Assembly: GCA_947588655.1 (NCBI GenBank)
Contig: CANPYS010000009.1
Location: 1-54,017, forward strand
Origin: an uncultured Alphaproteobacteria bacterium
GTDB taxonomy: Bacteria; Pseudomonadota; Alphaproteobacteria; RF32; CAG-239
Direction: 5' to 3'
DNA: 54,017 nucleotides
The notes beneath the pieces are model-generated. The model did no database searches and had not been told where the DNA came from. It was given only the letters and a program-made list of their open reading frames with translations. Numbering within the stretch: position 1 is the first letter of the stretch; each line of letters begins with the position of its first letter. Position numbers and translations under genes: made by a program. Positions 18,068-50,230 of the stretch are shown here, piece by piece.

Positions 18068-21007
18068 CTAGAATTTGTACTTGGCTGAGAGGATTCCCGT
18101 GTGGTCGCTATAATCCTCACGGAATCTGCCCTCGTAACCAGCCGCCACTTCCCATTGAGAAGTCACGTCTGTTGCGACTTTCGCACCAAGCTCAAAACCA
18201 AAGCGGTCAAGCTCTTCGCCGTCCACTTTGATCGCCTGACCATTGGCCAAAACAACATGACTGTTGTTGTCGTCTGTGCTCAGGTCGTAAGTCAAAGCCG
18301 CACGAACTTCCGGACGAATGTTCAAACCGTTGGAAAACGCAAAGTCTTTCGCAGCTTTCACACCGGCAACCGCTGTTAAGACATCAATATCGCGATCTTT
18401 CACACGAACGCCCAAACCGTTGGTGTAAGAATCTTGCGAAGCATGCAAGTATCTCAAACCACCTTCGGGTGTGATGTTATAACCATCGCCGACATGGAAG
18501 TTGTAACCATACAAGCCTTCCAAAGCCAATGTATCAACGTCATATTTTGCCTTAGCATCATGACCTAACACAGATTTCTTTTCCTCATAATCCGACCAGC
18601 TATAAGCGGCAACGCCTTTGACGTACCAATCAGCCGGTTGATATTGACCATATACGAACAAGCTATGTGTATCCACATCTGTATCACGAGTATAGCCGTT
18701 GATATCTGATTGGCTATAAGCATAGCCTAAGCCGACCTTACCGGCACCGATTTCTTTATCAACACCCATGGCAACACCATAAGTATCAATATCAAAGCCA
18801 CGAGCTTTGTCTGTGTCGTCCCTATCGGCATAGTTAAACAAGCCTTTTATCCAAAGTTTAACTTTTTCAAACAGTGGGTTTGTTTCAGACTGTGCGACCA
18901 TTGCCGATTCGTTATCATCCAAAGCATCGCTTGCGGCATCAAAGATCATATTGCTTAACGCGGTTTCACGTGTTTGAACAACAGGTGCGGCATCAGCAAC
19001 TAAGGCATCTGCGGCGCGGCTCAACAATTCGCTATTGTTTCCATATTGCGATTCGCTACGCAGTGTATCTTGAATTTCATCAAAATCGGCACGACCGCTA
19101 CCAGTTTTGGAAGAAGAAGTTGCGAGCAATGTTGCCGCCTCAGCTTCTTTCACACCCAATCTGTTGGCAACATCACCCGCAGAGCGCTCTTTAACGGTGT
19201 AGCTGACGTCTTTTGAGGGAGTTTTTTTATCTTTCTCAAAGGTATACAGATTGTTGGTATCAGCATTTTTATCAAACATCTCGTCTATAAAACGTGAGTA
19301 GGTTATTGGATCCGAAAAAGCACCACCATTGCTTGTGGATGTTAATTTTACAGATTGTTGGTCACTATTCGTGAAAATACCGTTTGTGCCTGTTAATTGA
19401 AGGTTGCCATTATTCATGGTCTTGTCTGTAACAATGACACGAACGGAAGCTTGTGATTCTTCTCTATACTGTAAAACGTTTTCAACCTTGCTTTCAACCT
19501 TAGTTGTATCTTTCACAGTTAAGCTTGACTTGCCTTTCATCTCAAGCGTTCCGTTTTTACCGCTGATACCACCGTCCAAGGTCAATGAAGCCCCGTCAGC
19601 AAGCGTGACTGTGGAAGTGTCGTCAATGTTAATGTCGTTCTTCTTATCACCAACTTTGTTGTTCTTAAAGACGTTATTGCCTTTAAAGGTGGTACTTGTT
19701 GCAGCTGTTGAAATCGCACCGCCGGCACCTTTTGCTGTGTTATCTTCAAAGGTCACGTTTTCAAGAGATAAGGTTGTTTCCAAGCCAGCAAAAATAGCGC
19801 CACCGTTACCGTTTGTTGCGCTGTTGCCTATAAACGAACCATTTGTAATTTTAAGAGCCCCGATATTATTGCTATGATTGCTATAAATCGCACCACCACT
19901 TGCACCTGTATTGCCGTCAAAGGTTGCGTTTGTAACAGTCAGTGTTCCGCCACTGTTTAGGATAGCACCACCTTCTGCGGTGGAGTCGTTTTTACTAAAG
20001 CGACCGCCTTCAATGGTCAATTTACCTTTACTGTAAATTGCCCCGCCTTTGTTGGAGCTGTTTTCAATAAAATCACTCTCTGTGATAGATAAGGGCTGAC
20101 CTTCTACAGTACCCTCACTTTTACTGCCAATACTGATAGCACCACCGGCAACTCCGGAAGTGTTGCCTTTAAAAGTTGATTTGCTAATCTGCAAGCTACT
20201 CTCCTGACCATTGCTGTTACCTCGAGTCGCAATCGCACCACCAACCGTGTTGGAGTTGTTGCCTGTAAATGTAGAATTATCAATAGTCACATTGGAGGCA
20301 GAACCAACGAAGATGGCGCCACCGCCTTCGGATTTACCTGTATCTACATCATTTGCAAAGTTCGAGGCGTCATACTGATCACCATACACCTCGTTGCTAT
20401 CAAAAGTTGCGCCGGAGATGTGTGTTTCACCGCCTGACCAAATCGCGCCACCACCGTATTTGGCTTTGTTCTTTGTAAAGGTTGTGCCCTCTAGAACGGT
20501 CAATTTAGCACCAGGGGTGTTAGTGCTTTTACGGTTTGTCCAAATCGCCCCGCCCTGTCTGGACTGATTGCCCTGGAATGTAGCACCTGAAACAGTGGTT
20601 TCAGAGCCTTCTTTGCCAAAAATAGCACCACCATGACCATTGTTGCTACCACTGCTGAGGTCGCCGGCAATGTTTGTATCAAACAAACCACCGTTGACAA
20701 CCAAGATGCCCTCATTATAAACGGCCGCACCATTGTAGTCAGAACTTTTCTTAGTGTTGTTTCTAAAGGTGACATTGTTTAGGGTTAATTGTTCGGAATA
20801 ATAGCTGTTTGGGCCATAGCCGCCACCGCTGTTAAGTTTGCGCTCTGTTTTAAAAACACCATCCGTATCACCTGTATATACTTTATCGGTATATTCCTCT
20901 GGTGCTTTCCCTGCGTTAAAGCTTTTTGCCCCAACCGGCTTAACATTTGCGGTAAACGCAAACGCCACACTCACAAGAGCAGTTGTAATTAAAAGATTAT
21001 TCTTCAT
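18068..21007 (-). CDS. Autotransporter with Pmp/AIDA-like passenger
   Basis: The 979-aa product has a signal peptide (MKNNLLITTALVSVAFAFTA), a passenger of about 450 residues with repeated GGAI and FxxN motifs (GGAIFGKE, GGAIWTN, GGAIFVGS, GGAIATRG, GGAIYSKG) as in chlamydial Pmp proteins, and a beta-barrel from about residue 700 ending in an aromatic residue (ILSAKYKF). It should export a beta-helix passenger across the outer membrane, with a likely role in adhesion. ATG at 21007 is taken over a TTG two codons earlier; AAAGGA lies 10 nt upstream. Confidence 0.88.
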   Translation of the reverse strand: MKNNLLITTALVSVAFAFTANVKPVGAKSFNAGKAPEEYTDKVYTGDTDGVFKTERKLNSGGGYGPNSYYSEQLTLNNVTFRNNTKKSSDYNGAAVYNEGILVVNGGLFDTNIAGDLSSGSNNGHGGAIFGKEGSETTVSGATFQGNQSRQGGAIWTNRKSTNTPGAKLTVLEGTTFTKNKAKYGGGAIWSGGETHISGATFDSNEVYGDQYDASNFANDVDTGKSEGGGAIFVGSASNVTIDNSTFTGNNSNTVGGAIATRGNSNGQESSLQISKSTFKGNTSGVAGGAISIGSKSEGTVEGQPLSITESDFIENSSNKGGAIYSKGKLTIEGGRFSKNDSTAEGGAILNSGGTLTVTNATFDGNTGASGGAIYSNHSNNIGALKITNGSFIGNSATNGNGGAIFAGLETTLSLENVTFEDNTAKGAGGAISTAATSTTFKGNNVFKNNKVGDKKNDINIDDTSTVTLADGASLTLDGGISGKNGTLEMKGKSSLTVKDTTKVESKVENVLQYREESQASVRVIVTDKTMNNGNLQLTGTNGIFTNSDQQSVKLTSTSNGGAFSDPITYSRFIDEMFDKNADTNNLYTFEKDKKTPSKDVSYTVKERSAGDVANRLGVKEAEAATLLATSSSKTGSGRADFDEIQDTLRSESQYGNNSELLSRAADALVADAAPVVQTRETALSNMIFDAASDALDDNESAMVAQSETNPLFEKVKLWIKGLFNYADRDDTDKARGFDIDTYGVAMGVDKEIGAGKVGLGYAYSQSDINGYTRDTDVDTHSLFVYGQYQPADWYVKGVAAYSWSDYEEKKSVLGHDAKAKYDVDTLALEGLYGYNFHVGDGYNITPEGGLRYLHASQDSYTNGLGVRVKDRDIDVLTAVAGVKAAKDFAFSNGLNIRPEVRAALTYDLSTDDNNSHVVLANGQAIKVDGEELDRFGFELGAKVATDVTSQWEVAAGYEGRFREDYSDHTGILSAKYKF

Positions 21008-21037
21008 ATTCAAAACATCCTTTATAAAAAATTTTAT

Positions 21038-21062
21038 AAAAAAACCGCTCCAAAAGAAGCGG
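21038..21062 (-). terminator. Intrinsic terminator in the autotransporter leader
   Basis: On the minus strand CCGCTTC pairs with GGAGCGG over a TTTT loop and is followed by seven T, about 30 nt before the start codon. Its 5' arm abuts and shares bases with the stem at 21061-21135, so the two structures may compete, as in attenuators. Confidence 0.6.
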
Positions 21063-21135
21063 GCGGATGTTCAAAACCGTATAATCGCAGACGGCTCGGC
21101 TTATTTGGCAGAGCCTTATTCGCCGACATCCGCCC
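21061..21135 (-). promoter_or_regulatory. Structured 5' leader, riboswitch- or attenuator-like
   Basis: A perfect 10-bp stem (GGGCGGATGT/ACATCCGCCC) closes a region with nested CGGC/GCCG and GGCT/AGCC stems and a CCGT/ACGG hairpin. With the adjacent terminator this could control read-through into the autotransporter. I do not recognise a known riboswitch class. Confidence 0.5.
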
Positions 21136-21156
21136 AATATATAAATTGAATCAGAA

Positions 21157-21243
21157 GTCGGCACAAATTTTTTAAAGTCGCGTGCACACGACTACGATTA
21201 TCAAGGGTTTTGACGCCCTAGGCAGAACCTCTGCCATGCCGAC
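21157..21243 (-). promoter_or_regulatory. Four-way-junction-like inverted repeats at the transcript start
   Basis: GTCGGCA/TGCCGAC enclose three hairpins: GGCAGA/TCTGCC, AGGG/CCCT and AGTCG/CGACT. The upstream arm overlaps the predicted start of transcription, so the outer stem may act as DNA rather than RNA. Confidence 0.4.
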
Positions 21244-21272
21244 AGTCTATGTAATCTAATGGGAATAGTCAA
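21244..21272 (-). promoter_or_regulatory. Promoter of the autotransporter gene
   Basis: On the minus strand TTGACT and TAGACT are 17 bp apart, giving a leader of about 230 nt. Confidence 0.55.
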
Positions 21273-21395
21273 GCAAAAAATGAAAGTATGTGTAAATAAA
21301 AGAAATTCAAGCCATCAAAAGCTGCATAGAAAAACGAAAATCCCGAAACAAGCTTGGGATGACTTTTAGTATAGATTCGGGATCTTAGTAATGAG

Positions 21396-21416
21396 ATGCT
21401 GAAACAAGTTCAGCAT
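21396..21416. repeat. Dispersed ATGCTGAA palindrome, copy 3
   Basis: It has the same arms as at 11-31, preceded by CCCGAAACAAGCTTGGG at about 21342-21358. Confidence 0.7.
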
Positions 21417-21464
21417 GACAACAAGGAAACAAGAAAATCAATTACTTATCTTCTAAATATGTGC

Positions 21465-21567
21465 AAAAAAACGTACGTTTAAATGTGTGAATTGTCAAGA
21501 AAAATTTTCAAGATTTTTCAAAAGGTTATTTTCTTGATGAAATGAACATTTAAACGTACGTTTTTTT
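21465..21567. repeat. MITE-like hairpin element, copy 1
   Basis: About 103 bp bounded by inverted repeats (AAAAAAACGTACGTTTAAAT and its complement), with inner TCAAGAAAA/TTTTCTTGA arms. An inverted second copy, about 104 bp, is at 53784-53887; its terminal arms use GGTACA/GGTACC in place of CGTACG. No coding capacity is seen. It may be mobilised in trans or serve as a bidirectional terminator. Confidence 0.65.
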
Positions 21568-21599
21568 GAGAAAGGGGAAAATTTCCCAAAAACGTCACA

Positions 21600-21954
21600 C
21601 TTAGGACTTTAGTCCGAAGAGTCCAGGAAAAACGAATCAAATTGTCATGCTAAACACCCAAATGTCATGCTGAACTTGTTTCAGCATCTCTTTATGAGAT
21701 CCCGAAACGAGTTCGGAACGACGATTCGGAAAGATTAATTGTCCTGGACTCTTCCACCCTTCGGGTGTCAGAGTGACGGTAAGTGCGTTTTACCCGTGAC
21801 GTCATCCTAAGTGGAGCCTATAAAAAATAGTTTAAAAAATTTATTGATTTTTTAAGGTTTATGTATTACATTGTAATTAACAGGAGTAAATCCTTGCGGA
21901 TGGGGTTCTGAATGTTCCTCGTAAATAGTTCGTAAGGTTTCCTGTATTTTTTTA
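21600..21954. repeat. Dispersed repeat block
   Basis: No gene is seen. It contains the inverted ATGCTGAA palindrome (21667-21687), a CCCGAAACGAGTTCGG stretch near 21702, and a segment at 21719-21757 (ACGATTCGGAAAGATTAATT and onward) that is repeated at 22219-22255 inside the DUF3800 relic's upstream side. Confidence 0.6.
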
Positions 21955-27324: not shown

Positions 27325-28956
27325 ATGGAAGAAATCAAGTGTGCGGTTTATACCAGAAAATCAACGGACGAAGGCTTGGAAAAAGAGTTTAATACCCTAG
27401 AAGCCCAGCGCGAGGCCGGCGAAAACTATGTTAAAAGCCAAAAGCATCAAGGCTGGGTGCTGATTAAAGAGCATTATGATGATGGCGGTTTTTCCGGTGG
27501 TAACATGAACCGGCCGTCACTTAAACGGCTGTTGCAAGATGTTGAAGCCGGCAAAGTGAATATGATTGTGGTTTATAAAATTGATCGTCTCACACGTTCC
27601 TTAACCGATTTTGCCAAGATGGTTGACATTTTTGATAAATATAAATGCTCGTTTGTATCGGTTACGCAAAATTTTAATACTGCGGACAGTATGGGGCGCC
27701 TGACCTTAAATATGCTGTTATCCTTTGCTCAGTTCGAGCGTGAAATCAGCGGAGAACGTATCCGCGATAAAGTTGCCGCTTCCAAGAAGAAAGGAATTTG
27801 GATGGGCGGTTGCGTGCCGTACGGTTATGAGCCGATTAAACGCAAGCTGGTTATAAAGCCTGATGAAGCCAAAGCGATTAAGTTTATGTTTGAAAAATAT
27901 CTGGAGTATAAATCGCCGCTTGCCGTATCCAAGCTGATGGAAGAAGCCGGCATGAAAACCTTTGCCAGAGCATCGATTGACCGCATGCTTAAAAACCCGA
28001 TTTATATGGGCAAGATTAAACATCAAGGTGTGCTTTATGACGGACAACACGAAGCCATTGTCAGCGAGGAGATTTTTAAGGCGGCGCAAAATGTTGTAGC
28101 TGAAAAGCCGAAGAAACAACGCACTTGTATGTATGATAAAAATGAAGTCGGAATTATGCGTGGCCTCTTAACTTGCGGGTGCTGTCATTCTTTGATGACA
28201 CCGACTTCCAGCCAGGCGCATGGAATGAAGCGTTATTATTACACCTCAACGGTGGCAAAAATGTACGGACATCACAAATGCACCAACGGATCTGTGCCGG
28301 TGGTTACGATGGACGAATGTATGATAAAGATTGTATCACAACTGTTTTTGGACCCGAAAGTTTTTCAAGGTCTGCTTGAGAAAGTCGCGCCGAATAAATC
28401 AATGGAGTTATTAAGGGTTTTGCGCTCGCCGGAGCGGGTATTTAATAAGCTTTCGGAAAGGCATCAATTGCTTTTAATGCGCCTGATGATAACCGGTGTG
28501 ACGGTTAATGAGGAAACCATGGAGATAAACTGGACGGACTTAGGTTTGAGCTTGCTTCCGGATCATCTGTTGCAAAAAACAACCGGACATCAGACAATTT
28601 TGCCGATGCCGTTTGTAAAACATAAAGGTCGGACGGAAATTCACTTGCCGGAAAATATAGAGGTTGAACCGCATTTTGATAATGAGCTGATTAAGGGAAT
28701 TTGTCTCGGGTTTAAGTATCAAAAAATGATGGATCAGAAGAAAATGAGTATCGCCGATTTGGCTATCACAGAAAATACCGATGCTTCTCATATCGGTCGG
28801 CTGTTGCGCTTGACTTCACTCTCGCCGGTAATTATCCGTACGATTTTGAAAGGCCATCAACCGCCGAAATTATACCTGCGCAACTTATTGCGTAAAACTA
28901 TCCCGCCGATTTGGGAGGATCAGGTTAAACAGTTCGGCTTCACGATTTTAGACTAG
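27325..28956 (+). CDS. Large serine recombinase (site-specific integrase)
   Basis: The 543-aa product has the resolvase catalytic domain at residues 1-150 (CAVYTRKSTDEG with the nucleophile Ser, VVYKIDRLTRSLTDFAKM, FEREISGERIRDKVAASK), the recombinase domain (PYGYEPIKRKLVIKPDEAKA), a zinc-ribbon-like stretch (LLTCGCCHSLM ... HHKCTNG), and a C-terminal helix-rich part. It would integrate and excise the element by serine chemistry. Coupled to DUF2924. Confidence 0.92.
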   Translation: MEEIKCAVYTRKSTDEGLEKEFNTLEAQREAGENYVKSQKHQGWVLIKEHYDDGGFSGGNMNRPSLKRLLQDVEAGKVNMIVVYKIDRLTRSLTDFAKMVDIFDKYKCSFVSVTQNFNTADSMGRLTLNMLLSFAQFEREISGERIRDKVAASKKKGIWMGGCVPYGYEPIKRKLVIKPDEAKAIKFMFEKYLEYKSPLAVSKLMEEAGMKTFARASIDRMLKNPIYMGKIKHQGVLYDGQHEAIVSEEIFKAAQNVVAEKPKKQRTCMYDKNEVGIMRGLLTCGCCHSLMTPTSSQAHGMKRYYYTSTVAKMYGHHKCTNGSVPVVTMDECMIKIVSQLFLDPKVFQGLLEKVAPNKSMELLRVLRSPERVFNKLSERHQLLLMRLMITGVTVNEETMEINWTDLGLSLLPDHLLQKTTGHQTILPMPFVKHKGRTEIHLPENIEVEPHFDNELIKGICLGFKYQKMMDQKKMSIADLAITENTDASHIGRLLRLTSLSPVIIRTILKGHQPPKLYLRNLLRKTIPPIWEDQVKQFGFTILD

Positions 28957-33150: not shown

Positions 33151-34620
33151 ATGACTACGGAGACCAGTGTTACTGTCAGACCGATACTTTCGGTATTTCT
33201 TTCTTCATTAAGGGATATAGGCTATTCCTTTGAAACGGCTTTGGCTGATTTGGTTGATAACAGTATTTCCGCCAATGCTGAAAACATTAAAATATATGCA
33301 TTACCATCCACCGATAAACTTGTCATTGTTGATGACGGAAACGGCATGTCGGATGATATGCTTAAGGAAGCCATGCGTTTAGGAACACAAAAGGAAACCA
33401 GAGCTAAAAATGATTTGGGGCGTTTCGGTTTAGGATTGAAAACAGCTTCTTTCTCGCAATGCAAACGATTAACGGTATTTTCGAAATGCGATCAAACCAT
33501 TTCGGGATATACATGGGACCTGGATTTTCTTTCACAAAAAGATGATTGGTTGTTACAGAAAGCATCTCTTGATGATTTAAAATCAAAACTGAATGAGATG
33601 AGCCCGCAAATATATGGTGAATTTTCTTCCGCAAAGCATGCTTCACTGATTTTATGGGAAAAAATAGACAGGTATTCTGAAGAAGAGTTTGATGAAGAAC
33701 TGAAAAATGCCAGGAAGCATTTGGCTTTGACTTTTCACAGATATTTAGGTTTTCCGGGATTTAACGGTCAAATGGTTAAATTGTATTTTAATAATACAAG
33801 AATTGACCCGTTTGATCCTTTTACATCCAAAGATAAAAATACGGCCCGATCCGGAATGCAGGCTCAAACCGATGAATACACATTGTCTAACGGTACAAGC
33901 CTCTCTGTTACTCCTTACATCCTCCCGCCTCTGAATAAACTCTCCCAAAGTGAATATAAAGAATTGGCTACTACTGAAGGTTTTACCAGATCACAAGGGT
34001 TTTATTTATACAGACAAGGCCGCTTACTGATTTACGGTACATGGTTCGGTTTATCTTGCATTAAGGATGCATCCAATCTTGTTCGAATAAGAATAGATGT
34101 TGATGTTTATCAGGATCAGGAATGGAAAATAGATGTTAAAAAATCTACGGCTTTTCCGAATTTGGAAATCCGAAAAATTTTATCCCATTACGTAAACGTC
34201 CCGATTGATAAATCAAAAAAGGTACATAAAGCTTCCGGTATAGTTTCCAAGAAAACAAAAGAATGCTACTGGAAGGAAGTTATATTTAATGATACTTCCG
34301 AATTCAGAATTAATGAAGAGCATCCGCGGTATAAAGCATTAATCGAAAATATGACTACTGAACAAAAACAGCGTCTGAAAGGATATCTGGCTTGTCTCGA
34401 GGAATGCTATCCGAAGGAACAATTACACTCCCTGATGACGACAGATCCGTATTCGGTCAAAGAAAGAACCGTAGATGAAAATATTTTGGTGGAAGAAATT
34501 ACTGAATACAAAAACATGGGAAAAGATAAAGAAACAGTCAGAAAAATACTTTTGGCAGATGAATACTATGTTAATGCCGAAAATTTAATTGATAAAAAGC
34601 TTGGAGAAATATATGACTAG
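33151..34620 (+). CDS. GHKL ATPase of MutL/MORC type (defence)
   Basis: The 489-aa product has the N-box ALADLVDNSISANAENI (about residue 30), G1 DDGNGM (about 60) and G2 LGRFGLGLKTAS (about 88-99) of Hsp90/MutL/histidine-kinase ATPases. Linked to Z1, Vsr and a cytosine methylase, it fits the predicted restriction-like systems in which MORC-related ATPases were recognised by comparative genomics. It may sense or remodel invading DNA upon ATP binding. It overlaps the Z1 gene by 8 nt. Confidence 0.85.
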   Translation: MTTETSVTVRPILSVFLSSLRDIGYSFETALADLVDNSISANAENIKIYALPSTDKLVIVDDGNGMSDDMLKEAMRLGTQKETRAKNDLGRFGLGLKTASFSQCKRLTVFSKCDQTISGYTWDLDFLSQKDDWLLQKASLDDLKSKLNEMSPQIYGEFSSAKHASLILWEKIDRYSEEEFDEELKNARKHLALTFHRYLGFPGFNGQMVKLYFNNTRIDPFDPFTSKDKNTARSGMQAQTDEYTLSNGTSLSVTPYILPPLNKLSQSEYKELATTEGFTRSQGFYLYRQGRLLIYGTWFGLSCIKDASNLVRIRIDVDVYQDQEWKIDVKKSTAFPNLEIRKILSHYVNVPIDKSKKVHKASGIVSKKTKECYWKEVIFNDTSEFRINEEHPRYKALIENMTTEQKQRLKGYLACLEECYPKEQLHSLMTTDPYSVKERTVDENILVEEITEYKNMGKDKETVRKILLADEYYVNAENLIDKKLGEIYD

Positions 34621-37426
34621 CGATTATGAAAATTTCGTAAATCTGGTAAAAGCCGAAATAACATTTAATTTCACAGATGTAACCAGTATAACGGAAGCGG
34701 ATATAAAAAATGTCGTCCAAGATACAAGGGATAGATATAAAAAAAGACATAATATAACTATATCTGATGAGGATGCTTTAAGAGCAGTATCAGAGTTATT
34801 ACATTTTTATGCTGTAACCATGACTGATGAGGATTCAGAATTATTTGAAACAAGAATTAAATCCACTTGGTGGACTGACTCAGCTGAAACTCGTGAAAAA
34901 GATGGCAGGAATTATTATTGGAATTCCTATAAAGAGTATCTTTTGAAAAAAGACAAATTACCAGCTGATGTTATTGAACGGATTGATGAAAGAAGTGATA
35001 AAGTAATGAATTATCTTTTTGATCCGACCAATCCGGATATTAGAGATATAATAACGCGTCGCGGTATGGTTATCGGTTCGGTTCAATCCGGTAAAACGGC
35101 AAATTATTCTGCGCTTGTAGCAAAAGCGGCTGATGCCGGATACAAAATTATTATTATAATCGCTGGTATATCCTCTCTATTAAGAAAACAAACTCAATTT
35201 CGCATAAACTGCGGTTTTGTAGGACTGACGGATTTAAATAGAGATGAACCGGAAAAAATCCCAGAAAAACCTTGTACCGAAGGAACAGTTACAGATTATA
35301 GAGGGCAAGATAAGAGTGAGCTGGAAAGGCTCAGACCATTTGCAATGACAAACGAACGTATGAGCGGAGATTTTAAGACTACTTCAAGCAGAGCTCAAAA
35401 CCAAACGAATTTAAATAATACCACATCTCCGCTTGTTTTTGTAATCAAAAAAAATACGACAGTGCTGCAACGTCTTATTGAATGGTTGGACGGTAAAGAT
35501 TTGTCTGAAAAATCTTTATTATTGATTGATGATGAAGCTGATAATGCATCTGTTAACACAAAGAAAGAATATGATGAAGTAACGGCAATAAATAAAAAAA
35601 TAAGATCAGTTTTAAAAAACTTCAAAAAGAGTGCTTATGTAGGTTTTACAGCAACTCCGTTTGCAAACATTTTTATAGATCCTATGCTTGCTGAAAATTC
35701 AGAAGATAGAGATTTGTATCCCAGTGATTTTATTATTTCTCTGGTTTCACCAGATAATTATTTCGGTCCACAAAAAGTTTTCGGTCCTGAAAACGCTGAA
35801 GAATCTGAATATATCAGATTACTTGCGGAAGAAAATACAGGTGAAGCGAAAGAAGATTGGCAAAAATACTTTCCGGTAAAGCAGAAAAAAGATGTTACAT
35901 GTCATAAAGTTGATGATTTACCTAGGACTCTTAAAGAAGCTATAAACTTATTTATCTTTAATATATACGTTCGTAATCATCGTGGATATGCAAACAAACA
36001 CAATTCCATGCTGATTCATGTCAGTTGTTTGGTTGATATGCATAGTGCAATAAAAGAACAAGTAACCAAATACCTTTTGGATTTGGAAAAAAATATAAGA
36101 AATTATGCAGGGATGAAAGGAACATCGGAATACTTAAAATATATAGCTCCGTTAGAAAAAATTTTTGAAGATATGTTAGAAGGTGATTGGGCTTCATCAC
36201 CAAAATTTGATACTCCTGATTTTGATGAAATGCTTCCGGAACTTCCAAACATCGTAGCTAGTATTAATGTCGGTATGTCTAATACAAAAGAAGCATCTAT
36301 TAAATATTCTTCTGAACACCAAACTAATATGATAGCAGTTGGTGGTAATAGTTTAGCCAGAGGATTTACAATAGAAAATCTCAGCGTGAGCTATTTTTTA
36401 AGAAATACAAAGATGTGTGATACACTTTTACAAATGGGGCGGTGGTTTGGATATAGACGTGATTATGACGATTTGTGTAAAGTATATACTACTGAAAAGT
36501 ATTATGATAATTTTCATAATGCCTTGATTTCAACAAATTCCTTGGTTAATTGTGTAAAGAGTATGGAAAAAGCAGGAAAAACTCCGACAGAATTTTTAGT
36601 GACCGTATCTCAACATCCTGCAACGCAAATGATTTTAACCGCTAAAAACAAAATGTATAATGCAAATAAAGATAATGGGGTCTTTTTAGATGGACATATC
36701 CGCGAGAAAGGAACATATAATCGTTCGGAAATGGATGAAGTAGCAAATTATTTTTCTACTGCAGAAAATTTTATTTCGCAACTTGGGACTCCAGAAACAG
36801 TTTCTCAAATAAATAATTCAGATGACACAGAAAATTGCTATCGTTGGTTGAATGTTCCCGCAGAAAAGATTATTGGATTAATAGAAAAATGCCCAAAATC
36901 GTTTAACAATATTAATGATTCTGATTTATTAATTAAGTATATCAAAGAAAATAAAAAACATAATTGGCGTGTGGTATTACCCTATGCTCAAAATGGAAAC
37001 GAAGTAAAATTATCTGGAAGTAATATATCTTTTTGTAAGTTTACACGTTTTGATAAATTAGAGGACGACAAAAGATCCTTTGCTGTATCAGATAAAAAAC
37101 AAGAACAATTTGGATCACTTAAGGAAGAGTATCCTAAAGAAATAACACGAGAAAATCTAAGGCTCGAGAGGAATGATCCATTACTTATTGTAAATATATT
37201 TGATTTATACGAACATATGAGTAAAGAAGATAGAAAGCATAAAGAAAAAATATTGGTTAAAGAGAATTTTCCTTTTTTCTCACTTAGTTTTCCCGGAAGT
37301 TTTGAAAAACCAAAATTTAATCCATTGATGGGATTTAAATATAATAAAATACTGCAAGAACAATTGCGAGCAGAGATAAGAGAACAAGAAGAAAGCAGTG
37401 ATGATACGGAGAATGAATATGAATAA
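34613..37426 (+). CDS. Z1-domain P-loop ATPase/endonuclease-associated protein
   Basis: The 937-aa product has a Walker-A-like GSVQSGKTANYSALV (about residue 154), a DEAD-like LLIDDEADNAS (about 300) and the Z1 signature LLQMGRWFGYRRDYDDLCKV (about 606-625). Z1 proteins accompany GHKL ATPases, AIPR and methylases in predicted defence loci; a helicase-like motor function is inferred. ATG at 34613 with GGAG upstream is preferred to 34589. Confidence 0.88.
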   Translation: MTSDYENFVNLVKAEITFNFTDVTSITEADIKNVVQDTRDRYKKRHNITISDEDALRAVSELLHFYAVTMTDEDSELFETRIKSTWWTDSAETREKDGRNYYWNSYKEYLLKKDKLPADVIERIDERSDKVMNYLFDPTNPDIRDIITRRGMVIGSVQSGKTANYSALVAKAADAGYKIIIIIAGISSLLRKQTQFRINCGFVGLTDLNRDEPEKIPEKPCTEGTVTDYRGQDKSELERLRPFAMTNERMSGDFKTTSSRAQNQTNLNNTTSPLVFVIKKNTTVLQRLIEWLDGKDLSEKSLLLIDDEADNASVNTKKEYDEVTAINKKIRSVLKNFKKSAYVGFTATPFANIFIDPMLAENSEDRDLYPSDFIISLVSPDNYFGPQKVFGPENAEESEYIRLLAEENTGEAKEDWQKYFPVKQKKDVTCHKVDDLPRTLKEAINLFIFNIYVRNHRGYANKHNSMLIHVSCLVDMHSAIKEQVTKYLLDLEKNIRNYAGMKGTSEYLKYIAPLEKIFEDMLEGDWASSPKFDTPDFDEMLPELPNIVASINVGMSNTKEASIKYSSEHQTNMIAVGGNSLARGFTIENLSVSYFLRNTKMCDTLLQMGRWFGYRRDYDDLCKVYTTEKYYDNFHNALISTNSLVNCVKSMEKAGKTPTEFLVTVSQHPATQMILTAKNKMYNANKDNGVFLDGHIREKGTYNRSEMDEVANYFSTAENFISQLGTPETVSQINNSDDTENCYRWLNVPAEKIIGLIEKCPKSFNNINDSDLLIKYIKENKKHNWRVVLPYAQNGNEVKLSGSNISFCKFTRFDKLEDDKRSFAVSDKKQEQFGSLKEEYPKEITRENLRLERNDPLLIVNIFDLYEHMSKEDRKHKEKILVKENFPFFSLSFPGSFEKPKFNPLMGFKYNKILQEQLRAEIREQEESSDDTENEYE

Positions 37427-38375
37427 AGCTGATAATTCAACCGTAATCCCTTGGAAATCTTTATCTGAAGGACAAAAGATTAAAGCTTCACCTGATGTTA
37501 AATCCGATATATGGTGGGTTCGTTTGCAAAACGGGAAGTATGGTCTTACAATAAATTTTAACGGCATTGTGCATATAGATCTTGCTCAAATTCGTTTTAG
37601 CGGAGCTGATGCTAATTTAGCAGACGTGAACGGAAAATCAGTTTTTGCTCTTTCTTTGCGTGAAGATGCAGATATTGAGATTTTTAATCGCTTCGGAGAA
37701 GACCTGGTATCCGTCCCCGTTTATGATGATAAGCAAAAATATGCGGAGGCACTGTTTGTAAGGATGAAACAATGGATGAAATTCTTACAAAGACTGAAAA
37801 AGAAAGAAATTGATATCAGAACCCAAATAGGCTTAATTGCGGAATTAAAATTTTTGCAATATATGCATTCGGAATATTCTCGCACATATGAAGAATTACT
37901 GGCGGCGTGGCAAGGTCCGGAAAGAGCTGACAAAGATTTTATGTTTGATGACTTTTTTGCCGAGATCAAGGCTTGTTTTGATGATGAAAACGGAGTTCAT
38001 ATTTCGAATGAACGGCAACTGGCACGAGAGAGCAAAGATTTATTTCTTGTATGTTATAAGTTTACTCAAGATGCCTCAGCTGACAATCTCGCGGATATTA
38101 TATCCGTATTAATACAACAAATAAGAGACGAAAAAGAAAATCTTGTTATCGTATTTGAGCAAAAACTTTTGTCGGTCGGTTATAACCCGGCACTTTTATA
38201 CGAAAACCTTGTATCCGTTAAAGATGTTTCTGTAACTTATTACAATGTTACCGATGAATTTCCGAGCATTACGGTAACAGATATTTCGGAATGTATCTCA
38301 AATGTAAAATACGACATTGATTTTATGGGTATGTCAAAGTATGCCGTACAAGAACTGATTGAAAGGAAAAAATAA
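37419..38375 (+). CDS. PD-(D/E)XK motif protein (DUF4420)
   Basis: The 318-aa product has SDIWWVRLQNGKYGLTINFN, TQIGLIAELKFLQYM and the putative nuclease motif DFMFDDFFAEIKAC (E-x-K at about residue 182). It is the likely DNA-cutting subunit of the Z1/AIPR cluster. ATG at 37419 is chosen because GGAGA lies 7 nt upstream; it then overlaps the Z1 stop by 8 nt. Confidence 0.82.
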   Translation: MNKADNSTVIPWKSLSEGQKIKASPDVKSDIWWVRLQNGKYGLTINFNGIVHIDLAQIRFSGADANLADVNGKSVFALSLREDADIEIFNRFGEDLVSVPVYDDKQKYAEALFVRMKQWMKFLQRLKKKEIDIRTQIGLIAELKFLQYMHSEYSRTYEELLAAWQGPERADKDFMFDDFFAEIKACFDDENGVHISNERQLARESKDLFLVCYKFTQDASADNLADIISVLIQQIRDEKENLVIVFEQKLLSVGYNPALLYENLVSVKDVSVTYYNVTDEFPSITVTDISECISNVKYDIDFMGMSKYAVQELIERKK

Positions 38376-40462
38376 TGGCAGATACTCAATTAGAAGATTT
38401 TTATCAAGGATTTTATCAAGATGCTTTGACTGATTTTCAGGTAGATAAGGATGCTTCGAAAGCACAGATTTTTACACAAAAAATAGGAAGTTATCTGGAG
38501 CAGGACGGAGATGTCGCAGATATCACCTGGAGTGAATACATTCAATCAGACATTGAATTTGCCGGTTATGCATATGATGAAGAACGAAAATTGCTGACCA
38601 TTATCGGAAGTCAGTTTTTCCCGGGTGAACAAATTGAGACACTTACAAAGGATATGTATGAGCGTAAATTTAAGAAAATGAAACTCTTTTTTGAAGAAAC
38701 GGTTAATACAAGTTCTCCGTTATATTTCGTAATGTCTCCTACCGATGAGGCTGTTGAGTCGGCAAAGTTTATTTATGAACTGTTTAACTCCGGTAAAATT
38801 CAACGAATTATGTTTTTAATTATCACAAACGGCACGCTGACCAGAAACACCAAAGTTATTGCGCCCGAAACAATTAAAAATTTGAGAGCTGATTTTCAGG
38901 TGTTCGATTTGAAGGATATTTACAGAATATCAACTCAGGAAAACAATCTGCAGGAAATTGAAGTTTCAATCAGCGATTATACGGATGAAGGTCTGTTGTG
39001 TTTACCTGCATCTTTGGAAGCTCAGGACTATGCTTCTTATCTGGTTGTTATGCCTGGAAATGTTTTGGCCCAGATATATGATCAGTACGGACAGAAATTA
39101 TTAGAGCAAAATGTTCGTACGTTTCTGCAATTCAAAGGAAATACCAATAAAAAAATGCAGATTACGATAAAAGAAGAACCGGAACGCTTCTTTGCATATA
39201 ACAACGGCCTGACTTGTACGGCATCTTCAATTGAAGTCGAAAAACAGGACAATGTCTTAAAAATTGTCCGGTTAAACGGATTACAAATAGTGAACGGCGG
39301 TCAAACGACTTCAGTTATTTATAACTGTTATAAGAATAAGGTTGATATCAGCAATATCTTCGTTCAAATGAAATTATCCGTAGTTTCTAAAGAGGATGAA
39401 TATGCGGACTTTGTCGGAAAAGTAGCAAGATATGCCAATAGCCAAAATCCTGTTAAAGAATCCGACTTTTTCTCTAACAGTCCGTTCCATAAAACATTTA
39501 AGGAATTATCGGAAAGAATATGGGCTCCTATGTCCGGTGGTCAACAGATTAAAAACAAATGGTATTATGAACGTACTCGCGGTCAATATTTGAATGAGAA
39601 AGCTAAATATGTCAGAGACGGAAAAGAAAAAGAATTTCTGTTGCGTTATCCGAAAGAACAAATGGTGGATAAACATTTGTTGGCTAAGACGGAAATGATT
39701 TTCAGTAACCTCCCGTACTTATCTACAAAGACAAACCAGGCCTTTCCGAAGTTTGCAAAACAAATTGAAGATATGCTTGAAAAGGATGAGGTTTCCATTA
39801 ATGAGGCTTATTTTAAGGAAGCAATAGCAAAGATAATATTAACCGTTAAAACAGATAACATCCTGAAAGAAGCTGATTGGGTCAAGAGCAGAAAATCCGT
39901 AAGAGCCTATATTAAGGCTTACGCATTGGCAATTTTGAATAAATATATCAAGGAACATGAAGCATATCTTAATTATGCTGATGTCTGGGACAGACAGGAT
40001 ATATCCGACGATATGGAAAAAGTGTTGAATATATGTATCAACGTTGTCAGATCATATATTGAAGCTCAGGAAAACGAAGCTGATTTGCGTGAAAAATTCA
40101 GTCGTGAATATACTTGGAAAGAAATACAACAACTCAAATTTGAAATACCTGAAAAATTATTTGAAAATATAATTACCGAAAAAGAAACGGTTAAATTCGA
40201 GAAAAAAGAAGCAAAAAAACAGCAGGCAATCGATAATAATATTGAACGACAGGCATTTGTTGTAAAATTACCGTTCTCTGTATGGGGAAAATTATTTGCA
40301 TTTTATAATGCAAATAAATCTTTATGCGGTGGTCTGAAGGAGTTTGAAATACTGGGAAAAATGTCAAAAGGTTATCTCCTTCCGCCGAGTGAGAAACAAG
40401 CTCAGATTCTATATGCTCTTTATGAAAAGGCTAAAAGCATGGGAGTAAAGCTTGATGGATAA
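38375..40462 (+). CDS. AIPR-family protein
   Basis: The 695-aa product has the AIPR core: KEEPERFFAYNNGLTCTAS (about residue 270) and LNGLQIVNGGQTTSVIYN (about 305). AIPR stands for abortive infection phage resistance, and members recur in restriction and abortive systems; the biochemical activity is not established. Its ATG overlaps the DUF4420 stop by one base. Confidence 0.88.
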   Translation: MADTQLEDFYQGFYQDALTDFQVDKDASKAQIFTQKIGSYLEQDGDVADITWSEYIQSDIEFAGYAYDEERKLLTIIGSQFFPGEQIETLTKDMYERKFKKMKLFFEETVNTSSPLYFVMSPTDEAVESAKFIYELFNSGKIQRIMFLIITNGTLTRNTKVIAPETIKNLRADFQVFDLKDIYRISTQENNLQEIEVSISDYTDEGLLCLPASLEAQDYASYLVVMPGNVLAQIYDQYGQKLLEQNVRTFLQFKGNTNKKMQITIKEEPERFFAYNNGLTCTASSIEVEKQDNVLKIVRLNGLQIVNGGQTTSVIYNCYKNKVDISNIFVQMKLSVVSKEDEYADFVGKVARYANSQNPVKESDFFSNSPFHKTFKELSERIWAPMSGGQQIKNKWYYERTRGQYLNEKAKYVRDGKEKEFLLRYPKEQMVDKHLLAKTEMIFSNLPYLSTKTNQAFPKFAKQIEDMLEKDEVSINEAYFKEAIAKIILTVKTDNILKEADWVKSRKSVRAYIKAYALAILNKYIKEHEAYLNYADVWDRQDISDDMEKVLNICINVVRSYIEAQENEADLREKFSREYTWKEIQQLKFEIPEKLFENIITEKETVKFEKKEAKKQQAIDNNIERQAFVVKLPFSVWGKLFAFYNANKSLCGGLKEFEILGKMSKGYLLPPSEKQAQILYALYEKAKSMGVKLDG

Positions 40463-47600: not shown

Positions 47601-48950
47601 TCATAATCCACTTAAATCCACATTTACGATCATTGATTCATCATGATTATTTTGTTTCAGAAACATCACTAAATACCAAGGAAGATAGGTTATTCTCTCG
47701 GTTTTTTGGATATTGTCCATACAAAATACAATACCTTTTTTTAGGTTCCATTCCTTAACTTTTAAGGCATTATTAAGTGCGGCATGTGTTTTATAATCTT
47801 TACCTGATTTAATTTCAATCGGCATGACTTCATCATTTTGCTGAACCACAAAGTCCAGCTCTCCTATATTCTTTTTATTAAGATACCGCAATGCGAAGCC
47901 ATTGGCTTTTAAAAGTTCGGCAAAGGCATTTTCTAATATTCCACCCATATTTATAGATAAATTACCCTGCAGTATCTCAAATTGTATATTTTCCAGGCTC
48001 ATTGCGCATAGTAAGCCGACATCACTCATATAAAGCTTGAACAAACGGCTTTGTTCGTTAATTTTAAGCGGGATCTTTGGCTCTGTCAGATTATAGCAGG
48101 GCAGAGCAACTCCGGCATCTGAAAGCCAAACAAAAGAATCCTCATAATCACGAAGTCTGGCGTTCTTTTGAACTGATGAGAGCATAAATCGGCGATTTTT
48201 ATCATCCAGCTGTGATGGTATATTATCAAATATATTGTTAATCATATTTTTACTGGTGGTAGAATATTTGCTTATATCCTGTCGATATTGGGCAATAATA
48301 TCTCGTTGAACATTTACGACTTGTCCTATATCATGTGTGTTTATAAATCTTTTGACCACATCAGGCATACCGCCGACAACAATGTAATACTTGAATAGAT
48401 TAGACATGGTTTGATGAATGGAATCAGTTATCGGTGTCTGTTTTTCATAACATTCATGCAAATAATCAAGCGTTGATGGTTGAACTCCATTGGCAATACA
48501 AAATTCTTCAAAATCCATCGGATACATCTGGTATATTTCTTCATACCCCACAGGATAAGATGGAACTTGCTTATATTGAACGCCTAATAAAGAGCCTGAT
48601 TCTATGTAATCAAATCGACCATCATCAACCAAAAACTTAATGGCTGTTCTTGCATTAGGACATTCCTGTATTTCATCAAGGAATATCAAGGTTTTTCCTT
48701 TTTCTAATGACTTTCCGATGAATGCTGTTAAATTCATGATTAAAGTATCTGCGTTCAGATCACCGGAGAAGATATCTTTGGCAGAAGGTGTTGTGATGAA
48801 GTTAATTTCTACATAGTGTTTATAATTAGCTTTACCGAACTCACGTACGATATAAGTTTTACCGGCCTGCCGTTGACCGGTTATCAATAAGGCCTTTTTT
48901 TTCGGATTAGCCTTCCAAGCTTGCAATATTTTCTCTGCTTTACGATACAT
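47601..48950 (-). CDS. AAA ATPase with DUF4143 domain
   Basis: The 449-aa product has Walker A (LLITGQRQAGKTYIVREFG, about residue 25), Walker B (TLIFLDEIQECPNAR) and a C-terminal DUF4143 region (VQKNARLRDYEDSFVWLSDA, LDFVVQQNDEVMPIEIKSGK, a nuclease-like fold). Such ATPases are abundant in accessory DNA and their role is unclear. ATG at 48950 is used instead of 48977 because AAGGA lies 7 nt upstream. Confidence 0.85.
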   Translation of the reverse strand: MYRKAEKILQAWKANPKKKALLITGQRQAGKTYIVREFGKANYKHYVEINFITTPSAKDIFSGDLNADTLIMNLTAFIGKSLEKGKTLIFLDEIQECPNARTAIKFLVDDGRFDYIESGSLLGVQYKQVPSYPVGYEEIYQMYPMDFEEFCIANGVQPSTLDYLHECYEKQTPITDSIHQTMSNLFKYYIVVGGMPDVVKRFINTHDIGQVVNVQRDIIAQYRQDISKYSTTSKNMINNIFDNIPSQLDDKNRRFMLSSVQKNARLRDYEDSFVWLSDAGVALPCYNLTEPKIPLKINEQSRLFKLYMSDVGLLCAMSLENIQFEILQGNLSINMGGILENAFAELLKANGFALRYLNKKNIGELDFVVQQNDEVMPIEIKSGKDYKTHAALNNALKVKEWNLKKGIVFCMDNIQKTERITYLPWYLVMFLKQNNHDESMIVNVDLSGL

Positions 48951-48970
48951 TCGCTGTTCCTTAAATATAT

Positions 48971-49083
48971 TATACACATTTTATAAGCTATATTTAACAT
49001 AAAAATACACAAAATTCAAGAATTATTTTGATAAATTATACACAAAATTCTAAATAAATTCGATTTTAATATACACATTTTTC
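48971..49083 (-). repeat. Four iteron-like direct repeats upstream of the AAA ATPase
   Basis: TATACACATTTT at 48971, AATACACAAAAT at 49004, TATACACAAAAT at 49037 and TATACACATTTT at 49070; spacings of about 33, 33 and 33 bp. They end at the ATPase start and probably form its operator. Confidence 0.6.
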
Positions 49084-50153: not shown

Positions 50154-50230
50154 GGGTCTGTAGCTCAGTTGGTTAGAGCGGGCCGCTCATAACGGTCTGG
50201 TCGGGGGTTCAAGTCCCTCCGGACCCACCA
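50154..50230 (+). tRNA. tRNA with CAU anticodon (Met or Ile2)
   Basis: Acceptor GGGTCTG/CGGACCC, D-stem GCTC/GAGC, anticodon stem GGCCG/CGGTC with loop CTCATAA, T-stem GGGGG/CCCTC; CCA is encoded. The first pair is G-C and the anticodon stem lacks three G-C pairs, so it is not the initiator. Elongator Met or lysidine-modified Ile(CAU) cannot be separated by eye. Confidence 0.9.

What the first reader, a model, noticed from the sequence alone, without database searches (positions are those of the whole stretch)
21038..21272. Long structured leader of the autotransporter gene with a terminator before the start codon
A 10-bp closed multi-stem region lies next to a perfect intrinsic terminator about 30 nt before the ATG, and the two share bases. 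A second four-way-junction-like set of repeats sits at the predicted transcript start. This arrangement suggests attenuation or an unknown riboswitch controlling a surface protein.
Basis: partly seen in the sequence, partly recalled or inferred. Interest (0 to 1): 0.62.

Follow-up and report, generated by a model that had tools for sequence, protein, structure and literature searches.

The report
Phage-immunity-type RNA switch before surface gene
The stretch before this surface-protein gene is a real, conserved folded RNA built like the antisense-RNA 'immunity' switches of phages P1 and P4, and gut bacteria related to this one carry many copies of it, mostly in front of genes for outer-surface proteins, each copy with its own matching recognition sequences.

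Summary
The minus-strand leader 21243-21008 has a promoter-like site, a 10-bp closed multi-stem core (P1-P2-P3), an intrinsic terminator sharing bases with P1, and the autotransporter ATG 30 nt later. It is not isolated: I read about 90 relatives in one gut-Alphaproteobacteria family (RF02221 matches in 59 of 82 genomes, up to 18 per genome). P1, P2, P3, the terminator and a long-range helix covary strongly. The core is a diverged relative of Rfam sRNA-Xcc1 (34 bits, cut-off 53; 56 bits in a relative). That family sits before phage antirepressor genes and symE, and has the C4/P4-CI layout: upstream a1/b1 targets, antisense core a'/b', downstream target at the ribosome-binding site. In the window type the terminator lies after the core, the target is the Shine-Dalgarno complementary to the P1 3' arm, and the genes are mostly envelope genes (65/79 exported or lipoprotein; background 140/424). 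Best reading: a chromosomal C4-type antisense leader giving each surface gene a private self-silencing switch. Alternative pairing and relationship are supported; direction of control and trans action are inferred. A metabolite riboswitch is not supported. New variant of a known kind.

The parts
21267..21272 (-). promoter-like -35 TTGACT
   Evidence: promoter-like pairs upstream of a1 in 40 of 56 relatives vs 6.8 expected from shuffles
21244..21249 (-). promoter-like -10 TAGACT
21221..21235 (-). 5' hairpin GGCAGAGGTTCTGCC, variable in sequence among relatives
21206..21213 (-). a1 strand UCAAAACC, upstream target of a'
   Evidence: a1:a' helix covaries: 68 double-change cells vs 15.4 shuffled; coordinates
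21190..21202 (-). b1 strand GAUAAUCGUAGUC, upstream target of b'
   Evidence: own b1/b' stem 8.9 bp vs 3.8 permuted, max 4.49 of 5000; coordinates
21176..21193 (-). hairpin H AGUCGUGUGCACGCGACU between a1/b1 and the core
   Evidence: covaries in the 72-sequence alignment
21157..21165 (-). conserved UGUGCCGAC, which can pair with GUCGGC of the core in the alternative fold
   Evidence: fold; conservation
21126..21135 (-). P1 5' arm GGGCGGAUGU (possible RNase P site at its 5' end, GGR)
   Evidence: GGA/GGG in 68 of 72
21097..21125 (-). P2 with conserved A-rich internal loop (GAAUAA / AAAUAA)
   Evidence: P2 outer helix 100% paired with changes on both sides at all four pairs
21080..21087 (-). b' antisense strand CGAUUAUA in the P3 loop
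21071..21078 (-). a' antisense strand GGUUUUGA
21061..21070 (-). P1 3' arm ACAUCCGCCC, alternative partner of the Shine-Dalgarno
   Evidence: P1 covariation and Shine-Dalgarno covariation
21038..21062 (-). intrinsic terminator, stem 21062-21045 and T7 21044-21038
21014..21020 (-). Shine-Dalgarno region GGAUGUU (a2), complementary to the P1 3' arm
   Evidence: 93% paired, 10 double-change cells vs 1.3 shuffled; own duplex -10.75 vs -9.08 permuted, min -9.67
18068..21007 (-). controlled gene: autotransporter with Chlamydia-PMP-type repeats
   Evidence: Pfam PF03797 E 3e-49, PF02415 E 7.3e-20

Best explanation
The leader is a C4-type antisense-RNA module (the kind used by phages P1/P7 and P4, and here shown also for the sRNA-Xcc1 family) used as a 5'-UTR switch for a chromosomal surface gene. 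Shown from sequence: (1) a1/b1 near the transcript start is complementary to a'/b' in the core, with locus-specific matched changes; (2) the core P1-P2-P3 is conserved and is followed by a terminator; (3) the P1 3' arm (AACAUCC) is complementary both to the P1 5' arm and to the Shine-Dalgarno (GGAUGUU), and the three change together; (4) copies occur mostly in front of envelope genes. Inferred: in the full transcript a1/b1 pairs with a'/b', which frees the P1 3' arm to mask the Shine-Dalgarno (OFF). When the core folds, the P1 3' arm is held in P1 and the Shine-Dalgarno is open. Most transcripts stop at the terminator, and the short RNA, perhaps cut by RNase P at the base of P1, acts in trans on read-through transcripts of the same locus through a/b pairing. 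Each gene would then be self-limiting, with a threshold, and insulated from its paralogues. Whether the short RNA represses (as P4 CI and P1 C4) or activates (as Gifsy-1 IsrK) cannot be told from sequence; default OFF is the favoured state.
For: Recurrence in 4 places of the own genome, in 24 of 55 relatives, and as RF02221 matches in 59 of 82 family genomes with 0 of 14 controls. Gene starts at a near-constant distance after the terminator. Covariation of P1/P2/P3/H, a1:a', Shine-Dalgarno:P1 3' arm and terminator, with slid controls far lower. Own a1b1:a'b' duplex -20.2 kcal/mol vs -7.6 with copies of the same genome and -9.0 with other genomes. Ten paralogous leaders in one genome (G095) vary most at a/b, and each pairs best with itself. 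RF02221 matches the window core full length at 34 bits, E 1.6e-4, and a family member at 56 bits, above the cut-off. RF02221 RNAs precede ant genes of phages Aaphi23, Rac-SA53 and Pmp1 at 62-86 bits and Bro-N, KilA-N, P22_AR, pRha and SymE genes in genomes, with upstream and downstream antisense targets, as annotated in phage P1. Gifsy-1 IsrK work (PMC4825925) shows experimentally that the upstream isrK strand pairs with the downstream strand in a translationally silent fold. MFE folds contain the long-range helix in 62 of 72 full leaders and P1 in none.
Against: The window core is below the RF02221 cut-off, and the C4 model RF01695 does not hit the own genome at all. No b2 target like that of phage C4 was seen. 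The terminator lies after the core in 72/72 window-type leaders but in only 1 of 33 phage-type loci, which instead have a T run before the core in 26 of 33, so the phage mechanism cannot be copied over unchanged. The Shine-Dalgarno covariation rests on few lineages. Avoidance of shared specificity within genomes was not significant (1 near-equal pair vs 4.4 expected, P 0.155). 11 of 90 copies have no clear downstream gene. No expression data exist here.
Confidence: 0.72

Rival explanations
1. A metabolite-sensing riboswitch (unknown class) with an expression platform made of the terminator and the Shine-Dalgarno helix.
For: Conserved multi-stem core with invariant A-rich internal loop in P2, a terminator, alternative pairing of the P1 3' arm.
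Against: The a/b segments vary most and vary as matched pairs between paralogues of one genome, which a metabolite sensor does not need; the nearest relatives are phage antisense leaders; no Rfam riboswitch hit.
Confidence: 0.08
2. A free-standing trans-acting sRNA gene that happens to lie before surface genes; the downstream gene is expressed only by read-through.
For: A promoter-like site and terminator bracket the element; sRNA-Xcc1 was found as an 88-nt RNA (PMC2996969); 11 of 90 copies lack a clear downstream gene.
Against: 79 of 90 copies have an ORF at a near-constant short distance, and the Shine-Dalgarno of that ORF covaries with the core, so the downstream gene is part of the unit.
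Confidence: 0.1
3. A mobile DNA repeat or a structured single-stranded DNA site (MITE, attC-like) that spreads in front of genes.
For: Multiple copies per genome and links of sRNA-Xcc1 to integrons (PMC12444791).
Against: Compensatory changes, G-U pairs, terminator and Shine-Dalgarno coupling and fixed orientation relative to a start codon point to RNA function; none of the pattern in viral contigs and none in plasmids.
Confidence: 0.04

Closest known systems
sRNA-Xcc1 (Rfam RF02221)
   Same: Same order P1-P2-P3, A-rich P2 loop, CCGUCU...UACGGUUUUxGA motif; full-length alignment at 34 bits in the window, 56 bits in a family member.
   Different: Window score below the family cut-off of 53. RF02221 loci elsewhere precede phage antirepressors, Rha, SymE; T run lies before the core; classical a2/b2 around the Shine-Dalgarno.
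C4 antisense RNA of phages P1/P7 (Rfam RF01695, with c4-a1b1 RF03163)
   Same: Order a1-b1, antisense core with a'/b', downstream RBS target; annotated in phage P1.
   Different: No RF01695 hit in the own genome; target in the window is the Shine-Dalgarno paired by the P1 3' arm; no b2 seen; surface gene instead of antirepressor; terminator after the core.
P4 CI RNA (seqA-CI-seqC) and Gifsy-1 IsrK
   Same: Upstream strand pairs with the antisense core; alternative folds decide whether the downstream ORF is translated (PMC4825925); P4 hits RF01695 and isrK models.
   Different: Prophage replication or antirepressor genes; the IsrK terminator lies upstream of the C4-like part.
Acinetobacter baumannii Group 1 C4-like sRNAs
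   Same: Many chromosomal copies of C4-like RNA in one genome with variable a' (PMC5320573).
   Different: Reported as sRNAs; in the passages read, not described as leaders of envelope genes with a matching Shine-Dalgarno.

Membership tests
sRNA-Xcc1 (RF02221) | Covariance-model score at or above the curated cut-off (53 bits) | tested here: not met
   34 bits, E 1.6e-4 in the window; 56 bits in relative G028
sRNA-Xcc1 (RF02221) | Consensus secondary structure P1, P2, P3 over full model length | tested here: met
   alignment to model positions 1-87 and covariation
C4 antisense RNA (RF01695) | Match to the C4 covariance model | tested here: not met
   no match in the own genome at E<=5; best relative 25 bits, cut-off 45
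C4 antisense RNA system (architecture) | Upstream a1/b1 complementary to a'/b' of the core | tested here: met
C4 antisense RNA system (architecture) | Downstream target at the ribosome-binding site complementary to the core | tested here: met
   Shine-Dalgarno complementary to P1 3' arm / a'; longer a2 in relatives L283/L284
C4 antisense RNA system (architecture) | Downstream b2 complementary to b' | not tested
   none seen by eye in window-type leaders; no statistic computed
C4 antisense RNA system | 5' processing by RNase P at a GGW motif with 3' RCC | not testable with these tools
   only motifs seen: GGA/GGG in 68/72, RCC in 62/72; the window itself has GGG and GCT
C4 antisense RNA system | Controls a phage antirepressor gene | tested here: not met
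   autotransporter; envelope genes in relatives
Known riboswitch classes in Rfam | Covariance-model match | tested here: not met

The most novel reading that the evidence does not exclude
A phage-type antisense immunity module has been taken over by gut Alphaproteobacteria as a standard control part for surface proteins: each copy carries its own matched a/b 'address', so that many surface genes in one cell are each silenced by their own short RNA without cross-talk, giving independent on/off states (phase-variation-like diversity) without any DNA change.
Probability: 0.3. Interest if true: 0.82.

Novelty: new variant of a known kind. Interest (0 to 1): 0.64.

Why it matters
It links an Rfam family annotated as a virulence-linked or vesicle-borne sRNA (sRNA-Xcc1) to the C4/P4-CI type of phage antisense regulators, and shows a chromosomal branch attached mostly to envelope genes in a large, hardly cultured gut clade. 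The many copies with matched, divergent address sequences make RNA-RNA orthogonality and surface-protein switching directly testable in a laboratory host.

Tried and rejected
Leader peptide: an ORF runs through a1/b1 in the window, but its frame is broken in relatives and the changes there are compensatory. Known riboswitch: no Rfam hit. Mobile element: exact core pattern 0 in viral contigs, no plasmid match; the only phage-collection hit to the window leader (MT836653, unverified faecal 'Bacteriophage sp.') carries the same leader before a long secreted-type ORF plus a tRNA and is probably a bacterial contig. Selection against shared specificity within one genome: trend only, not significant. 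C4 model as a direct match: failed for the own genome. Antiterminator GGGCG:CGCCC between upstream GGGCG and P1/terminator: considered, not tested separately. Pseudoknot with the long-range helix and P1 both formed: possible, not resolved. Phage gene families for several unnamed RF02221 downstream genes: one weak unknown-function PHROG hit only. Searches failed for technical reasons and gave nothing.

Full report
What is there. On the minus strand a promoter-like site (21272-21244) is followed by a leader of about 235 nt and the ATG (21007) of an autotransporter with PMP-type repeats. The leader has a 5' hairpin, a segment GGGCGUCAAAACCCUUGAUAAUCGUAGUC, hairpin H, a conserved UGUGCCGAC, a core of three stems closed by a perfect 10-bp P1, and an intrinsic terminator sharing two bases with P1. 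Its folding energy lies far outside shuffles.

It recurs. BLAST of the leader finds four copies in the own genome and copies in 24 of 55 relatives. The genome belongs to a reduced (1.5 Mb) gut Alphaproteobacteria family; named records with the core include Azospirillum sp. CAG:239 and many uncultured gut Alphaproteobacteria. A sample of 385 genomes of the class shows it in a few other families too. I extracted 90 distinct copies. In 79 an ORF starts just after the terminator, and 65 of these are predicted exported or lipoproteins by a crude rule, against 140 of 424 long ORFs in neighbouring DNA by the same, more generously applied rule: autotransporters, OMP barrels, small lipoproteins, pilin-like proteins, and a few regulators.

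It is an RNA with alternative pairings. On an alignment of 72 leaders (A1) the core stems and H have 46 double-change cells against 9.4 in shuffles, and slid controls fall to about 30-40% paired. The helix between the upstream a1 strand (UCGAAAACC type) and a' (GGUUUUCGA type), counted together with H, has 68 against 15.4. The neighbouring b1/b' strands differ between most loci yet match within the locus: mean own stem 8.9 bp, permuted 3.8, never above 4.49 in 5000 trials. The P1 3' arm also pairs with the Shine-Dalgarno, and the two change together: AACAUCC/GGAUGUU, AACUUCC/GGAAGUU, AACACCC/GGGUGUU, with the P1 5' arm following. In leaders of another family the Shine-Dalgarno complement extends over most of a' (GGTGTTCGAAAA, GGATTGTTCAGAAA). 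The terminator covaries, and a T run follows in 72 of 72. Minimum-energy folds of full leaders contain the a1 helix in 62 of 72 and P1 in none; half of the former also mask the Shine-Dalgarno. A pseudoknot with both is possible and was not tested.

What it is related to. No Rfam family reaches its cut-off at the leader. The only meaningful sub-threshold hit is sRNA-Xcc1, RF02221, full length, 34 bits, E 1.6e-4. The same model hits 59 of 82 family genomes and 0 of 14 controls, once above cut-off, and 62 of 398 Pseudomonadota genomes. Reading those loci shows what RF02221 is: the RNA lies shortly before Bro-N, KilA-N, P22_AR and pRha genes (phage antirepressor/regulator types) and before SymE, and directly before annotated ant genes in phages Aaphi23, Rac-SA53 and Pmp1 with 86, 78 and 62 bits. 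In these loci the a'/b' loop is complementary to its own upstream (-26.3 kcal/mol; permuted minimum -21.2) and its own downstream RBS region (-17.9; permuted minimum -15.4). This is the layout annotated in phage P1: a1, b1, C4 RNA, a2, b2, icd/ant; P1 and P4 themselves match the C4, c4-a1b1 and isrK models (some of these below the cut-off). I found no paper in the held library that mentions sRNA-Xcc1 together with antirepressors; one lists both models in Xylella without linking them in the passages read, and sRNA-Xcc1 was noted upstream of symE in Xanthomonas integrons. By model score the window RNA is a member of neither family; by structure and layout it works like one.

What is different. 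In phage-type loci a T run lies between a1/b1 and the core in 26 of 33, and after the core in 1 of 33; window-type leaders have it after the core in all 72. The downstream target is the Shine-Dalgarno itself, paired by the P1 3' arm, and no b2 is apparent. The regulated genes are mostly envelope genes.

How it may work. Published work on Gifsy-1 IsrK (PMC4825925) shows that the upstream isrK strand pairs with the downstream strand in a translationally silent structure and that the short upstream RNA acts in trans to activate. P4 CI, as cited there, represses by causing early termination. For the window I favour: full leader with a1b1:a'b' formed and Shine-Dalgarno masked is OFF; core folded is Shine-Dalgarno-open; the short terminated RNA acts in trans with locus specificity. 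Support for locus-specific action: in genome G095 ten paralogous leaders vary most at a/b and each is best matched to itself; over all genomes, foreign copies of the same genome pair at -7.6 against -20.2 own. The formal test for avoidance of shared addresses within genomes was not significant (P 0.155). An Hfq gene is present in the genome, so Hfq help is possible; the conserved AAUAA loops of P2 are unexplained.

Limits. All statements on expression, processing and direction are inference. Shuffle controls do not correct for phylogeny; the slid controls and the paralogue set partly do. Most genomes are metagenome assemblies. Exported-protein calls are heuristic.

Noticed in passing
L122-L151, L276-L278: Rfam sRNA-Xcc1 (RF02221), described as a virulence-linked or vesicle sRNA, is in many loci read here the antisense leader of phage antirepressor, Rha or SymE genes, i.e. 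C4-like; Rfam does not place it in the C4 clan.
   Followed up: yes
L105-L110, L255, L257, L258, L261 (genome G095): One genome has about 18 RF02221 matches; ten leaders read here precede paralogous secreted proteins (FAQCVATQDCETLGYTETSC...). The leaders differ mainly in the matched a/b address sequences.
   Followed up: partly
window 21097-21125: Conserved A-rich internal loop GAAUAAGG...CCAAAUAAG in P2, shared with RF02221 but absent from the phage C4 model; function unknown (ARN-like Hfq site possible).
   Followed up: no
window 26241-50227: Region next to a tRNA with a large serine recombinase (27325-28956), a Mza-type defence gene set (MzaB, C, D, E at 33151-40462, plus methyltransferase and Ppl-like gene) and a PDC-S01 candidate defence gene (47601-48977); a second tRNA lies at 50154-50227.
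   Followed up: partly
window 21389-21694: Inverted pair of 32-nt repeats (TGCTGAAACAAGTTCAGCATGAC type, 97% complementary) and a 40-nt inverted repeat around AAACGTACGTTTAAATG at 21464-21568, upstream of the leader promoter.
   Followed up: no
L275 562-775 (MT836653): An unverified faecal record labelled Bacteriophage sp. carries a window-type leader before an 890-aa secreted-type ORF; probably a bacterial contig.
   Followed up: partly
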